Shown: one piece after another, positions 58,754-62,235 of the stretch
Numbering within the stretch: position 1 is the stretch's first letter
How the letters are laid out: each line of letters starts with the position of its first letter
Source of the DNA: an uncultured Rubripirellula sp.
GTDB taxonomy: Bacteria; Planctomycetota; Planctomycetia; Pirellulales; Pirellulaceae
Assembly (NCBI GenBank): GCA_938075415.1
Contig: CALJHC010000003.1
Location: 372,001-436,000, forward strand
Length of the DNA stretch: 64,000 nt
Reading direction: 5' to 3'
The notes under the pieces: generated by a model
The model's database searches: none
What the model was told of the DNA's origin: nothing
Seen by the model: only the letters and a program-made list of their open reading frames with translations
Translations under genes and position numbers: made by a program

Positions 58754-59647
58754 ATGAGTCCCGATCCAACGCATTCAAGTGCCCGAAACCCCGACTCCGA
58801 AAGGAGCCTGCTCGGCAAAACGGACTGGAAACAGACACCATCCTCGGAGCTGAACAAGGACTCTTCCAGCACCGATCACCTTAATCGTGGCGACAAAGAG
58901 GAAGCGGGAAAGCAAGCAAGAGTTCAAGAAAAATCGGAGGCACCTCAAGCGGTAAAGATCGAGCGACGTCAAACGCTTGAGCATCACCTTAGGGCTAGCC
59001 CCACGGATCTTGATGCGTACTTGGAACTGGCCCACATCTATCGGAATGAGAACCGCCCGGCAGATGCCAGGCGAATTCTTAAGCAAGCACGAGAAGTTTT
59101 CCCAGAAGACGAATCGGTCTTATGGGAATATGAAGAGGCAGTTCTAGCTCGATCGCTACAGCAATTACGAGAAGTCGCTGAAATATCGCAGCGTCTCAAC
59201 ACCAATGAGATAGATCGCGAATTGCAACGCAGCGAAAACGATTGGGCCTGTCGTCGTATTGAGGTCTGCCAATCTAGACTTGCGAGAAACCCAATGCTTG
59301 ATGACCTTCGCCTCTCCCTGGGTGAGGCGATGCACGATGCTGGACGATATGAAGATGCAATCCATGAACTCAGCTGTGTCCTTGAAAAAGATCAACATTC
59401 GCCCCATGCCTATCTGCTACAAGGTCGCTGTTATCTACAATTGGGTAAAACAATCGAAGCAATGTCAGCATTGAGGGCAGTGGCGTTAAGAAGAGCCGTT
59501 GTTGCACCCGCCAAAATCCGAGTCTTGGCACTTCAACTTCTCATTAGCCATGCTCATCGCACAGGGGTTACACAGACACTTGCTCTTTACCAGGAACAGC
59601 TTGCTAGAGCAGAAAAGGAAAGCCTTGAAAATGAAAACCCAGCTTGA
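58754..59647 (+). CDS. TPR-repeat protein with disordered N-terminus
   Basis: 297 residues. The first ~70 are hydrophilic, Ser/Asp/Lys-rich and probably disordered. From ~78 on there are TPR helices (SPTDLDAYLELAHIYRNENRPADARRILKQAREVFPEDE; DLRLSLGEAMHDAGRYEDAIHELSCVLEKDQHSPHAYLLQGRCYLQLGKTIEAMSALRAV). No signal peptide, so it is cytoplasmic. AGGA lies 10 nt before the start. It precedes the WXG100-like gene by 136 bp on the same strand. A chaperone or scaffold role for the following small proteins is inference. Confidence 0.72.
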   Translation: MSPDPTHSSARNPDSERSLLGKTDWKQTPSSELNKDSSSTDHLNRGDKEEAGKQARVQEKSEAPQAVKIERRQTLEHHLRASPTDLDAYLELAHIYRNENRPADARRILKQAREVFPEDESVLWEYEEAVLARSLQQLREVAEISQRLNTNEIDRELQRSENDWACRRIEVCQSRLARNPMLDDLRLSLGEAMHDAGRYEDAIHELSCVLEKDQHSPHAYLLQGRCYLQLGKTIEAMSALRAVALRRAVVAPAKIRVLALQLLISHAHRTGVTQTLALYQEQLARAEKESLENENPA

Positions 59648-59783
59648 ATTTAAACCCGGTTACGTAGTGAAATGATAATTCGCTTTACGACCCAAACGCT
59701 GCGGCATAGATCGAGATTTTCAACAGTTCAATCACGAACGACCCTGAGTCATTGCGTCTCCTCATAACAACTCGGATTTTCAG

Positions 59784-60053
59784 ATGAACCAAGCAGTTGT
59801 CAATCCAGAGCACCTTAGACAATTCGCCAGCCAACTTCATCGATTTTCAGAAGAGATGCGGCAACAGTCCACCTCTTTGGGTGCTCAGATGAATCATCTC
59901 GAACAGACATGGCGAGATGAACAGCAAAGAAAATTTTCTGGCGAGTTTTCGGCGCAACTTCAACAGATTGCAAAATTAATTCAATCCACCGAAGAACATA
60001 TTCCTTACCTGCTAAGAAAAGCTGAGCAAATCGATGCCTACTTGGGACGATAA
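59784..60053 (+). CDS. WXG100-like (ESAT-6-type) small helical protein
   Basis: 89 residues predicted as a helix-turn-helix hairpin. The first helix is VNPEHLRQFASQLHRFSEEMRQQS. A central Trp43 lies in LEQTWRDEQQRKFSGEF, where WRD stands in place of WXG with the usual downstream Phe. The second helix is LQQIAKLIQSTEEHIPYLLRKAEQIDAYL. Size, Trp position and the missing signal peptide match WXG100 proteins, which form dimers and are exported by type VII secretion. No clear C-terminal YxxxD/E signal is present. The stop overlaps the next start (TAATG), so the two proteins are probably made in fixed ratio. Confidence 0.7.
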   Translation: MNQAVVNPEHLRQFASQLHRFSEEMRQQSTSLGAQMNHLEQTWRDEQQRKFSGEFSAQLQQIAKLIQSTEEHIPYLLRKAEQIDAYLGR

Positions 60054-60544
60054 TGGAATCCAGTAACGTTACGAACATTGATTCACTCGAGTCATTCCAC
60101 CGAGGAATCCTGCAACTTTCGCATGAGATCCGAACCATTACCGAGGAGATTCGCGCCTCGGTCGTTCGCGCTGAAGAATTTTTCACGCAAGAGCAACCCA
60201 GCTACTGGCGTCAGCAAACCAAGATTGCTGAACAGTCTCTCAATGAAGCCAAGGAACAGCTTGCAGCAAAAACAGCGACCGCTCGCCCAAATGATCGCCC
60301 TGCTGCAAGCGAAGCGCGCAAGCGAGTTTATCAAGCTGAGCGACGGCTTGCTCAATGCAACGAAAAGCAGCTAATGTGCAAGAAATGGTCGTTCAAGATT
60401 TCCAAACAATGCGATGAACTTCTCGGACCGATGGCGGATATTCTCGACCACTGCGATGCAGTCCTTCCGCAAGCTGCCGCTGAACTGAGAGGACTTGTTG
60501 GACAACTTCGAAGTTATGCCGAGCAGGCGGAAAAACCACTCTAG
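60053..60544 (+). CDS. Coiled-coil protein coupled to the WXG100-like protein
   Basis: 163 residues, nearly all helical. An N-terminal amphipathic helix (DSLESFHRGILQLSHEIRTITEEIRASVVRAEEFF) is followed by YWRQQTKIAEQSLNEAKEQLAAK, a charged bend (RPNDRPAASEARKRV) and a second long helix to the end. It has no signal peptide. Its ATG overlaps the preceding stop as TAATG. I have an impression of related proteins beside WXG100-like genes in other bacteria, but cannot name a family. It may be a secreted partner or chaperone. A Trp52 sits where a WXG-like turn would be. Confidence 0.7.
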   Translation: MESSNVTNIDSLESFHRGILQLSHEIRTITEEIRASVVRAEEFFTQEQPSYWRQQTKIAEQSLNEAKEQLAAKTATARPNDRPAASEARKRVYQAERRLAQCNEKQLMCKKWSFKISKQCDELLGPMADILDHCDAVLPQAAAELRGLVGQLRSYAEQAEKPL

Positions 60545-61056
60545 AGAGCAATTAACGGCTAAAAGAATACTTGCCTCAATCTACATGAATCATTTCATTT
60601 ACGTTTAACCCCTGCCTCAATACTTACCGATCGTGCTCCTCAACTCCCCGAATCCGCGTTGTCGTAACACCGAATCCGCGTTGTCGTGACACCGAATCCG
60701 CGTTGTCATGACACCGAATCCGCGTTGTGGTGACACCGAATCCGCCTTGTGGTGACACCGAGATCTTTATCCGGGCCGTCTGGAAATGAACCGAAGAACT
60801 CGCCTGAGACAGGCTGAGATTGTTGTGCAAACCGCTTCCCCTGCGAGGATGGACCGCGGTATGGCATAATCCGTGGCAGAAACAGTTCCAGAGTGATTCA
60901 TCGGATCACCGCCTTTCCGGAGGAATTCAAGGTGTTATCATCAAATCCGACACCGTTTCCAGGACGACAATCACTTGAGGCAACTCGTGCAAACTAATTG
61001 AATCAACTCACGATGCGATACGATGGATAGCTTCCCTTCCTCCAAAATCAACCAAC
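60545..61056. other. Gap after the WXG100-like pair with a 22-bp tandem array
   Basis: No gene seen. It contains the five-copy tandem array (listed separately) and the upstream region of the next gene. Confidence 0.5.
60648..60757. repeat. Five tandem copies of a 22-bp unit
   Basis: Contiguous 22-bp units start at 60648, 60670, 60692, 60714 and 60736, each built on CCGAATCCGCGTTGTSRTGA with one or two substitutions. A partial sixth copy follows. There are no spacers, so this is a minisatellite and not a CRISPR array. It lies between the coiled-coil gene and the next unknown gene. Confidence 0.93.
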
Positions 61057-62235
61057 ATGAACATGACTGATTCGAGCAACGAAATCTTTGAGCGACTCTC
61101 ACAATTAACCGGTCAGTCTTCGGAAATACTGGAAACAATCATTGAGCATTTCCGAAAAACCGCCCAACCAATGGAATTGTTTGAAGCGTTAAAGATGCGA
61201 GTTCGGGATCAACTGGGCCTACCCTTGATGAGCCATGAAAATGAGACTCGTCGGGCTGAGGATGTTGAGCGTCAACTCGAGCAGGGATTACTTGATGCGT
61301 GCCGAGAAGCCGGTGCGATGCTGATTGAGATGGGGCGTATTGGTGAGGGGTGGATGTACTTACGTCCCACCGGCGACGTCGCTGGGGTCAGGGAACTCTT
61401 GGCCAAAGTAAAGATTAACGATGACAATTACGAAGAGATGATTCAAGTACTTCTTCATGAGGGAATTGACATCGCTCGAGGATTCCAGGCTGTTCTAGAT
61501 CATCAAGGAACTTGCAACAGCATCACACTTTACGATCAAGCCATCGCCAATCGAAGCAAGCAAGATCGCGCCGCGGCCGCGGCATGCCTACTCAACCACT
61601 TCTACAACGAACTCAGTGAAATGGTTCGTGCTGACATCTCTAATCGTGAGGCTCCCGCCGATCCTGATGAATCACTGCATGACATGATTGAAAAACGTCG
61701 CTGGATTTTATCCGAAGGAGGCTATCATTTGGACACCACGCATTTGGCTTCAACTGTCAAAATTGCCTCGGTACTTGATGATCCCGAACAGCTTCAGAAA
61801 GCGTGGGAATTAACTCAATATGGAAGACGACTTCATCATCAATTCCAGTATCCCGGAGACGAGCCGTTTGTGGACTTCTACCCAGCCTATTCCACCTTCT
61901 ACTCCGTCCTGCTTGGCGAAAACGTCGAGGCTGGGCTAACCGTCTTCCAACGCAAGGCAAAAACCGTAAACGCTTCAGAACATGGAACCGGTGCGATGGA
62001 AACCTATGTCGACCTGCTTGATCGTGTTGGTCGCCATCAGGAGGCGATTGAGACGGCGGTTGAAATGATCCCCAACGAAGTGCCAGCTCAACGAGTGATA
62101 CCGATGCTGCTGGAAATTGCTGAGAAAGCAAAACAGGTAGATGGTCAGAATGGATATGACGTGTTACTCGAGTATTGCAAGAAAAAACAAGATGTACTCG
62201 GATACGCGGCGATGCTCGACGCCTCGAAACAGTGA
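61057..62235 (+). CDS. Unknown helical (TPR-like) protein
   Basis: 392 residues, soluble, acidic and largely alpha-helical. Possible repeat-like helices occur near residues 80-130 (LLDACREAGAMLIEMGRIGEGWMYLRPTGD) and 290-390 (LLGENVEAGLTVFQRKAKTV; YVDLLDRVGRHQEAIETAVEMIP; DVLLEYCKKKQDVLGYAAMLDASK), in the manner of TPR or HEAT folds. The middle contains HFYNELSEMVRADISNREAP and YPAYSTFYSVLLG. I do not recognise a named family; it looks like a planctomycete-type conserved protein. It converges with the next gene, with a hairpin between them. Confidence 0.7.
   Translation: MNMTDSSNEIFERLSQLTGQSSEILETIIEHFRKTAQPMELFEALKMRVRDQLGLPLMSHENETRRAEDVERQLEQGLLDACREAGAMLIEMGRIGEGWMYLRPTGDVAGVRELLAKVKINDDNYEEMIQVLLHEGIDIARGFQAVLDHQGTCNSITLYDQAIANRSKQDRAAAAACLLNHFYNELSEMVRADISNREAPADPDESLHDMIEKRRWILSEGGYHLDTTHLASTVKIASVLDDPEQLQKAWELTQYGRRLHHQFQYPGDEPFVDFYPAYSTFYSVLLGENVEAGLTVFQRKAKTVNASEHGTGAMETYVDLLDRVGRHQEAIETAVEMIPNEVPAQRVIPMLLEIAEKAKQVDGQNGYDVLLEYCKKKQDVLGYAAMLDASKQ

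What the first reader, a model, noticed from the sequence alone, without database searches (positions are those of the whole stretch)
58754..60544. TPR / WXG100-like / coiled-coil cassette, a possible type VII-like substrate module
Seen: an 89-residue two-helix protein with a central Trp (WRD turn), fused by a TAATG stop/start overlap to a 163-residue all-helical protein, and preceded by a TPR protein. Known: WXG100 proteins are usually exported by FtsK/SpoIIIE-type (EssC) ATPases and encoded beside partners. Inference: this is a planctomycete version of a paired small secreted-protein system, with the TPR protein as a candidate chaperone. No secretion ATPase is in the window.
Basis: partly seen in the sequence, partly recalled or inferred. 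Interest (0 to 1): 0.75.

Follow-up and report, generated by a model that had tools for sequence, protein, structure and literature searches.

The report
Split type VII-like export gene set
A planctomycete carries what looks like a slimmed-down relative of the type VII protein-export machine, with its small hairpin proteins in this window and its motor gene elsewhere in the genome, in a group of bacteria where such machines are little described.

Summary
The 89-residue protein is a WXG100-type hairpin: PF06013 35.3 bits against a cut-off of 27.3; model pLDDT 91; nearest folds EsxB/EsxA. Its turn motif is WRD, not WxG. The TAATG overlap with the 163-residue protein (a long two-helix hairpin) and the TPR gene upstream are real.

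An ATPase of the right class is on another contig: a membrane, three-domain FtsK-type protein with one Walker A, nearer in sequence to T7SS ATPases than to FtsK. Directly before it lies a second hairpin gene, WXG-B. In relatives the order is [TPR]-WXG-A-CC163-WXG-B-ATPase; here it is split in two. WXG-A and ATPase co-occur: 69 both, one each alone, of 99 genomes; 53 both, one ATPase alone, of 294 in the phylum.

EssB was not found and YukD is under cut-off, so it is not T7SSb. A 2012 footnote already notes planctomycete solo-WXG proteins with a three-domain ATPase, and H. pylori HP0062 shares WRD. Verdict: a new variant of a known kind. Secretion, substrates and a TPR chaperone role are inferred, not shown.

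The parts
58754..59647 (+). TPR protein (297 aa), accessory gene; kept beside WXG-A in this genus and some relatives
   Evidence: TPR models; homologues over 100 bits in 29 of 99 genomes, next to the 89-aa gene in 27 of these 29 (my reading); present in 23 of 80 named loci
59784..60053 (+). WXG-A: WXG100-type helical hairpin with WRD turn (89 aa)
   Evidence: PF06013 35.3 bits; AlphaFold2 pLDDT 91, helices 8-42 and 46-87; Foldseek first hits EsxB (TM 0.75-0.83), then EsxA-type proteins, none with an E-value under 0.001
60053..60544 (+). CC163: long two-helix hairpin protein (163 aa), start codon overlaps the WXG-A stop (TAATG)
   Evidence: AlphaFold2 pLDDT 94.1, helices 3-76 and 82-160; homologues in 70 of 99 genomes; no Pfam or NCBIfam family over cut-off
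61057..62235 (+). 392-aa protein of unknown function, possible accessory gene; downstream of CC163 in this genus
   Evidence: Next to CC163 in 10 of 80 named loci and in G057, where CC163 has moved away from WXG-A; only a sub-threshold DUF4032 match (18.4 bits, cut-off 23.8)

Best explanation
The cassette is one half of a reduced type VII-like export system of a diderm planctomycete of the Rubripirellula/Rhodopirellula group. [quoted passage not shown] Likely mechanism, inferred: the hairpin proteins WXG-A and WXG-B, alone or as a pair, with CC163 as partner or adaptor, dock on the degenerate ATPase domains, switch on the middle motor domain and are moved through or with the ATPase across the inner membrane, as EsxA/EsxB are with EccC/EssC (background knowledge). 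The TPR protein is a lineage-specific helper that works with WXG-A. Shown here: gene content, predicted folds of WXG-A and CC163, ATPase relationship, operon structure in relatives, near-perfect co-occurrence. Inferred: export, direction, substrate identity, dimer partners, TPR role.
For: WXG100 family match and hairpin fold. ATPase in own genome whose PDB matches are 4nh0 3.5e-31 (labelled there 'Cell division FtsK/SpoIIIE'; that it is Thermomonospora EccC is recalled), EccC5 2.4e-25 and YukB 2.8e-18, against DNA translocase FtsK 3.4e-8; the genome's own FtsK behaves the other way, FtsK 1.1e-129, 4nh0 1.2e-24, YukB 2.6e-17, EccC5 3.8e-10. NCBIfam ranks the ATPase EccCa 114.8, EssC 104, EccCb 75.3, FtsK 27.1 bits. 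Single canonical Walker A, GKTGSGKS at 793, near-invariant in 48 aligned ATPases; at least two N-terminal TM segments in 39 of these 48, one in 8, none in 1, by a simple hydropathy scan. C-terminal domain related to the active one (hhalign 97.6%, E 3.3e-12), N-terminal to C-terminal (91.5%, E 8.5e-7). WXG-B upstream of the ATPase in 49 of 52 ATPase loci; 21 loci supplied the model, so part of this is by construction. Order WXGA-CC-WXGB-ATP in 34 of 80 named loci plus 2 with TPR in front. Co-occurrence in 99 genomes: 69 both, 1 WXG-A only, 1 ATPase only, 28 neither. In 294 genomes of the phylum: 53 both, 0 WXG-A only, 1 ATPase only, 240 neither; 17 of the 53 pairs are not within 8 kb, and in six of these (G116, G176, G205, G246, G271, G304) both genes are on one contig, far apart.
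Against: No secretion data. EssB not found and YukD not over cut-off, so channel partners known from T7SSb are missing, in a genome that is 87% complete. ATPase scores far below the NCBIfam cut-offs for EccCa/EssC/EccCb (114.8/104/75.3 against 509.15/778.4/346.55). N-terminal to middle ATPase domain comparison not significant (1.3%). WXG-B is below the Pfam cut-off (16.1 against 27.3). No YxxxD/E motif near the end of 33 (A1) and 41 (A5) WXG-A rows and 19 WXG-B rows. In 31 of the 43 named loci without an ATPase match there were still 4 kb or more of sequence after the last core gene, so the split is common and not only a contig effect. The ATPase also resembles FtsK-like domains of defence proteins (PADLOC SspH 89.4 bits, mad8 75.1 bits). 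No toxin-like substrate was found.
Confidence: 0.68

Rival explanations
1. The four proteins form an intracellular or membrane-bound machine that uses the WXG hairpins as ATPase regulators without exporting anything, for example a stress, envelope-maintenance or anti-phage conflict system.
For: ATPase middle domain matches FtsK-like domains of defence proteins SspH and mad8 in PADLOC (89.4 and 75.1 bits); a paralogous cassette in G042 is surrounded by vWA, PP2C and transposase genes; EssB not found and YukD under cut-off; no toxin-like substrate seen; WXG-A is very conserved (62% mean column identity in 33 rows; 66% in 41 rows), unlike a diversifying effector.
Against: In the PDB and in NCBIfam, T7SS ATPases outrank DNA-translocase FtsK for this protein; TM segments place it in the membrane; WXG100 proteins of characterised systems are exported (background knowledge); one WXG-A copy in 69 of 70 positive relatives and in 53 of 53 of the phylum draw, not the scattered multi-copy pattern expected of defence islands (background expectation, not tested).
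Confidence: 0.22
2. The system is an ordinary T7SSb or T7SSa orthologue whose other parts were simply missed.
For: WXG100 plus EccC/EssC-type ATPase is the shared core of T7SSa and T7SSb (Garrett et al. 2024, PMC11217815, abstract and passages); genome only 87% complete.
Against: EssB (PF10140) none, YukD (PF08817) below cut-off in own genome; ATPase far below EccC/EssC equivalog cut-offs; CC163 and a second WxD hairpin are conserved instead. EccB/EccD/EccE/MycP were not searched.
Confidence: 0.04
3. The gene neighbours are a chance cluster: an isolated WXG100-like coiled coil beside unrelated coiled-coil and TPR genes.
For: In G057 and G058 WXG-A and CC163 lie far apart.
Against: 67 of 70 genomes keep the pair within 2 kb and the two genes have identical presence sets over 99 genomes; operons with the ATPase and both hairpins in 36 of 80 named loci.
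Confidence: 0.02

Closest known systems
Solo-WXG proteins with a distinct YueA-like ATPase of three HerA/FtsK domains (Zhang et al. 2012, PMC3482391, table footnote 6; passages read)
   Same: Planctomycetes named explicitly; three FtsK/HerA-type domains with only the middle active; stand-alone WXG protein.
   Different: The footnote as read gives no gene list and calls them mobile. Here: two WxD hairpins, a conserved 163-aa hairpin, TM segments, a gene order, and one WXG-A copy per genome (69 of 70; 53 of 53) with identity falling with kinship, which looks inherited rather than mobile (not formally tested).
Helicobacter pylori HP0062 (PDB 3FX7, 2GTS; described in PMC3397514, passages read)
   Same: Best PDB sequence match to the WXG-A profile (1.4e-10 and 1.9e-10, nearly full length); same WRD turn; hairpin; Gram-negative; reported in a gene cluster with an FtsK/SpoIIIE protein.
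   Different: Different phylum; its neighbours were not compared here; function unknown there too.
T7SSb (Ess/Yuk: EsxA, EssB, EssC, EsaB) and T7SSa (ESX: EsxA/B, EccB-E)
   Same: WXG100 hairpin plus membrane FtsK-type ATPase; a pair of small hairpins as in T7SSa.
   Different: EssB not found, YukD under cut-off; no FHA match in the ATPase (E up to 0.1); WRD not WxG; equivalog cut-offs not reached.
T7SSc-T7SSj (Garrett et al. 2024, PMC11217815, passages read)
   Same: Alternative T7SS component sets around an EssC-type ATPase and WXG100 protein; T7SSc has vWA and kinase-domain parts, as seen beside two planctomycete loci here (L074, L081).
   Different: Described there only in Bacillota and Actinomycetota; four C-terminal NTPase domains reported there, three detected here; CC163 and TPR were not mentioned in the passages read.

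Membership tests
WXG100 family (PF06013), for WXG-A | Score over the curated Pfam cut-off | tested here: met
   35.3 bits against 27.3; NCBIfam TIGR03930 not reached, 31.1 against 44.85
WXG100 family (PF06013), for WXG-A | Helix-turn-helix hairpin of about 100 residues without signal peptide | tested here: met
   Helices 8-42 and 46-87, pLDDT 91; EsxB and EsxA-type proteins are the top folds. No hydrophobic N-terminus in the sequence; no signal-peptide program was run
WXG100 family (PF06013), for WXG-A | Central W-x-G motif | tested here: not met
   W-x-D in 33 of 33 (A1) and 41 of 41 (A5) rows, W-x-G in none; W-R-D invariant; position is the same turn, and HP0062 has WRD too
WXG100 family (PF06013), for WXG-B | Score over the curated Pfam cut-off | tested here: not met
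   16.1 bits against 27.3; no NCBIfam family; related to WXG-A by profile (hhalign 83%, E 8.9e-6) and to S. aureus EsxA (E 1.9e-4)
WXG100 family, for CC163 | Detectable homology to WXG100 | tested here: not met
   hhalign 10.9%, E 0.0028 over 35 columns; no Pfam WXG match. A hint only: the CC163 profile touches the WXG-A gene at 13.6 bits, E 0.2
Type VII secretion system (general) | EccC/EssC-type membrane ATPase with WXG100 protein | tested here: met
   ATPase nearest to T7SS ATPases, with TM segments, co-occurring and in relatives co-encoded with WXG-A
Type VII secretion system (general) | WXG100 protein is exported in an ATPase-dependent way | not testable with these tools
   Needs an experiment
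T7SSb | EssB/YukC (PF10140) and EsaB/YukD (PF08817) | tested here: not met
   No PF10140 match; PF08817 best 14.1 bits, cut-off 27; genome 87% complete, own genome only
T7SSa/T7SSb ATPase equivalogs | NCBIfam cut-offs of TIGR03924, TIGR03925, TIGR03928 | tested here: not met
   114.8/75.3/104 against 509.15/346.55/778.4
T7SSa | EccB, EccD, EccE, MycP | not tested
   No search of these families was run
Solo-WXG plus three-domain YueA-like ATPase class (Zhang 2012) | Three HerA/FtsK domains, only the middle active | tested here: met
   One Walker A at 793; C domain related to middle, N domain related to C; direct N-to-middle comparison was not significant (1.3%)
Solo-WXG plus three-domain YueA-like ATPase class (Zhang 2012) | Mobile | tested here: inconclusive
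   One WXG-A match in 69 of 70 and 53 of 53 positive genomes and conserved order speak against mobility, but no gene tree was compared with a species tree
LXG / polymorphic toxin, for CC163 | Variable C-terminal toxin domain | tested here: not met
   C-terminal extensions of 3 to 95 aa, median 45, in 66 of the 67 CC163 loci (one weak match left out); the 14 longest that were printed look low-complexity

The most novel reading that the evidence does not exclude
Planctomycetota possess a widely and vertically kept, minimal type VII export machine with its own four-part core (two WxD hairpins, a long hairpin, one membrane ATPase) and none of the channel proteins known from other T7SS, so that ATPase plus hairpins may be all that is needed for export across the inner membrane of a diderm cell, possibly reflecting the ancestral T7SS.
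Probability: 0.3. Interest if true: 0.82.

Novelty: new variant of a known kind. Interest (0 to 1): 0.6.

Why it matters
The papers seen here describe type VII secretion almost entirely from Gram-positive bacteria and mycobacteria. A conserved, compact set of genes with the same motor class and hairpin class in diderm planctomycetes would give a testable minimal version of the machine and a defined gene list for cultured species such as Rhodopirellula. The set is also co-retained where the operon has broken up, which points to a functional link between the parts.

Tried and rejected
Considered and dropped: the 163-aa protein as the WXG partner or as an LXG-type toxin (no significant WXG homology; short tails, low-complexity in those printed). 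The profile search of CC163 against the PDB returned 420 sequences at E up to 1; the 60 shown are nearly all MHC class I chains, best E 4.6e-4, over about 40 residues; I take this as chance similarity of a charged helix, since the model is a plain two-helix hairpin. Foldseek for CC163 gave generic coiled coils, none under E 0.001. Larger fused WXG or CC163 proteins in the own genome: only sub-threshold matches (17.2 bits in a 1312-aa frame; 16.8 and 16.3 bits in 500- and 796-aa frames). Canonical T7SSb parts: EssB not found, YukD under cut-off. The NCBIfam SycD/LcrH match of the TPR protein (38.3 bits, cut-off 104.8) looks like generic TPR similarity. Rfam: nothing in the window at gathering scores. 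Promoter-like and terminator-like sites were not more numerous than in shuffles. Other conserved neighbours of the core were sought by clustering; the larger remaining clusters that I looked at were genus-level neighbours, generic gene families or antisense frames.

Literature: ten searches; several lists were capped (25 of 34, 8 of 818, 15 of 28). In these listings, and in the passages read of PMC4631099, PMC3482391 (only the first 300,000 characters held), PMC3935865, PMC11217815 and PMC3397514, I saw no description of this planctomycete gene set beyond the footnote in PMC3482391. The library holds only open-licence papers. A 2011 paper by Sutcliffe on the distribution of WXG100 systems is recalled, not seen.

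Self-made errors: one search failed on a wrong file name and was repeated. The recount changed one statement: I had written that many named loci end before an ATPase could follow, but only 12 of the 43 loci without an ATPase match have less than 4 kb left. Confidence values were not changed.
Full report
Check of the observation. The first protein carries tetratricopeptide repeats, the second is a WXG100 protein by Pfam (35.3 bits, cut-off 27.3), the third has no family over cut-off. NCBIfam's stricter WXG100 model is not reached (31.1 against 44.85). AlphaFold2 with an alignment of 41 rows gives two helices, 8-42 and 46-87, with the turn at W43-R44-D45 and mean pLDDT 91. Foldseek puts EsxB of B. 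anthracis first (TM 0.75-0.83, query-normalised), then EsxA-type proteins (S. aureus EsxA 0.82-0.86), although no E-value is under 0.001. The 163-residue protein is a single long hairpin, helices 3-76 and 82-160, pLDDT 94.1.

Where the ATPase is. The window lies in a 5.96-Mb, 87% complete assembly, G000. That genome has a normal FtsK on contig C23 and a second FtsK/SpoIIIE protein on contig C16; no FtsK_SpoIIIE match at E up to 0.01 is in the window. The C16 protein, 1306 residues (L068 6373-10293), starts with what looks by eye like a coiled coil (no predictor was run), has two predicted TM segments at 220-238 and 261-279 and one canonical Walker A (GKTGSGKS at 793) that is near-invariant in 48 aligned relatives. 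By the same simple hydropathy scan 39 of the 48 have at least two N-terminal TM segments, 8 have one and 1 has none. Its flanking stretches look like degenerate copies of the ATPase domain: the C-terminal one matches the active one (hhalign 97.6%, E 3.3e-12) and the N-terminal one matches the C-terminal one (91.5%, E 8.5e-7); the direct N-to-middle comparison was not significant (1.3%). Its best PDB matches are 4nh0 (3.5e-31; labelled 'Cell division FtsK/SpoIIIE' in the PDB, recalled to be the EccC of Thermomonospora curvata), EccC5 (2.4e-25) and YukB (2.8e-18), far ahead of DNA translocase FtsK (3.4e-8). The control, the genome's own FtsK, gives the opposite order (FtsK 1.1e-129, 4nh0 1.2e-24, YukB 2.6e-17, EccC5 3.8e-10). 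In NCBIfam the C16 protein matches EccCa, EssC and EccCb best (114.8, 104, 75.3 bits) and FtsK less (27.1), but the first three lie far below their cut-offs.

A second hairpin gene. Clustering of ORFs around relatives' loci showed a conserved gene of about 80 codons before the ATPase (21 members). In 19 aligned members W-x-D is invariant. A profile of the 21 also finds WXG-A genes (E from 3.4e-6 to the cut-off of 0.01; window WXG-A 9.9e-5), hhalign joins the two families (83%, E 8.9e-6), and S. aureus EsxA is its best solved match (E 1.9e-4). In the window's genome it lies at L068 6004-6237, just before the ATPase, with a WKD turn. It is under the Pfam cut-off (16.1 against 27.3), and one search did not list it. 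It was found upstream of the ATPase in 49 of 52 ATPase loci among the loci (missing in L118, L120, L151); 21 loci had supplied the model, so part of this count is by construction.

One operon in relatives, two pieces here. In G049, of the same family, the order is TPR, WXG-A, CC163, WXG-B, ATPase, then a Ser/Thr kinase, all on one strand. Of the 80, 34 show WXGA-CC-WXGB-ATP, 2 the same with TPR in front, 1 WXGA-CC-ATP, 3 WXGA-CC-WXGB, 17 WXGA-CC, 10 TPR-WXGA-CC-392aa, 11 TPR-WXGA and 2 WXGA alone. Of the 43 without an ATPase match only 12 have less than 4 kb left after the last core gene, so in the other 31 the ATPase is really not next door. The TPR-WXGA-CC-392aa order of the window is shared by 10 records: 5 titled Rubripirellula, 3 Rhodopirellula sp., 2 with no genus name. 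Equal contig lengths show that several of these are genomes of the window's genus (for example G014, G016 and G017 are the Rubripirellula records L179, L172 and L178, and G006 is the Rhodopirellula record L185), so I place the window in the Rubripirellula/Rhodopirellula group.

Co-occurrence. Among 99 genomes (own included) WXG-A and CC163 are present in the same 70; the ATPase is in 70, shares 69 with them, is missing only in G013 and extra only in G095; 28 have neither. WXG-A and CC163 lie within 2 kb in 67 of 70 (not in G057, G058 and, at contig ends, G068); WXG-A and ATPase within 8 kb in 40 of 70; of the 30 others 22 are the window's own genus. In an even draw of 294 genomes of the phylum, 53 have WXG-A and all 53 have the ATPase; one more has the ATPase only (G323); 36 of the 53 are linked, 17 are not, and in six of the 17 both genes sit on one contig far apart. 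Related genomes are not independent, so the Fisher values are only a guide, but the presence pattern is patchy down to genera within one family, and unlinked genes are kept together. Strong TPR homologues (over 100 bits) are in 29 of 99 genomes and lie beside WXG-A in 27 of these (my reading); G058 has it elsewhere and G032 has it without any of the other genes. Where CC163 has moved away (G057), TPR stays with WXG-A and the 392-aa gene stays with CC163.

What it is and how it probably works. The simplest account is a reduced type VII-like system: small hairpins that dock on and are moved by a membrane ATPase with one live motor domain, a long hairpin as partner or adaptor, and in this lineage a TPR helper. 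Export itself is inference from the family. WXG-A is more conserved than I would expect of an effector (62% mean column identity in 33 rows; 66% in 41 rows that lean to close relatives) and ends within 1 to 5 residues of the profile in 80 of 80 loci, so I see it as a working part of the machine rather than a toxin. CC163 carries tails of 3 to 95 residues (66 of 67 loci), low-complexity in the 14 longest that were printed, and no toxin domain was recognised. No large WXG- or CC163-fused protein passed a threshold in the own genome.

Comparison with the known. EssB was not found and YukD is under its cut-off in this 87% complete genome, the ATPase is below all EccC/EssC equivalog cut-offs, and the central motif is WRD, so I do not file it under T7SSb, nor under T7SSa, whose EccB, EccD, EccE and MycP were not searched. 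The closest precedent is a table footnote in Zhang et al. 2012 (PMC3482391; [quoted passage not shown] The second is HP0062 of H. pylori, the best solved match to the WXG-A profile (1.4e-10), also with WRD in the bend and reported in a cluster with an FtsK/SpoIIIE protein (PMC3397514, passages). Garrett et al. 2024 (PMC11217815, passages) name T7SSc-T7SSj but only in Gram-positive phyla. Ten literature searches (open-licence papers, several lists capped) showed no description of this gene set. What appears new here is the second hairpin, the conserved 163-residue hairpin, the ordered four-gene core, the TPR accessory and the operon split; the existence of such a class in planctomycetes was already noted.

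Limits and results against. The ATPase's motor domain also matches FtsK-like parts of defence proteins SspH and mad8 (89.4 and 75.1 bits), so a non-secretory conflict role is a live rival. No YxxxD/E motif is near the end of WXG-A or WXG-B rows (that such a motif marks actinobacterial substrates is recalled; the CC163 rows were trimmed, so the test is not valid for them). A weak hint links CC163 to WXG-A (13.6 bits, E 0.2; hhalign 10.9%), which I do not count as homology. Structures were predicted for single chains only. No experiment shows secretion.

Noticed in passing
window 60648-60761: Tandem array of a 22-bp unit, 5.2 copies, 94% matches, between CC163 and the 392-aa gene; a two-unit pattern with up to 3 mismatches was found only in this array in the 87% complete genome.
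   Followed up: partly
L074 3362-11375 (G042:C3): Second, different WXG100 cassette beside transposase-like genes (IS110 type over cut-off; integrase core just below cut-off): two vWA genes, a WXG100 gene (31.9 bits), a 436-aa coiled-coil-like protein with an extra C-terminal part, an FtsK-type ATPase of 1059 aa, a 155-aa gene and a PP2C gene; resembles T7SSc or Ter-like modules.
   Followed up: partly
L081 14273-15880 (G049): A Ser/Thr kinase gene follows the ATPase in the intact operon, reminiscent of the kinase-domain part of T7SSc.
   Followed up: no
L068 4279-5820 (G000:C16): 513-aa gene with HEAT-repeat matches just below cut-off lies before WXG-B and the ATPase; 11 homologues in the loci examined, from the window's genus and two close genera.
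   Followed up: no
G032:C1:937571-938248: TPR orthologue (44% identity) in a genome without WXG-A, CC163 or ATPase matches.
   Followed up: no
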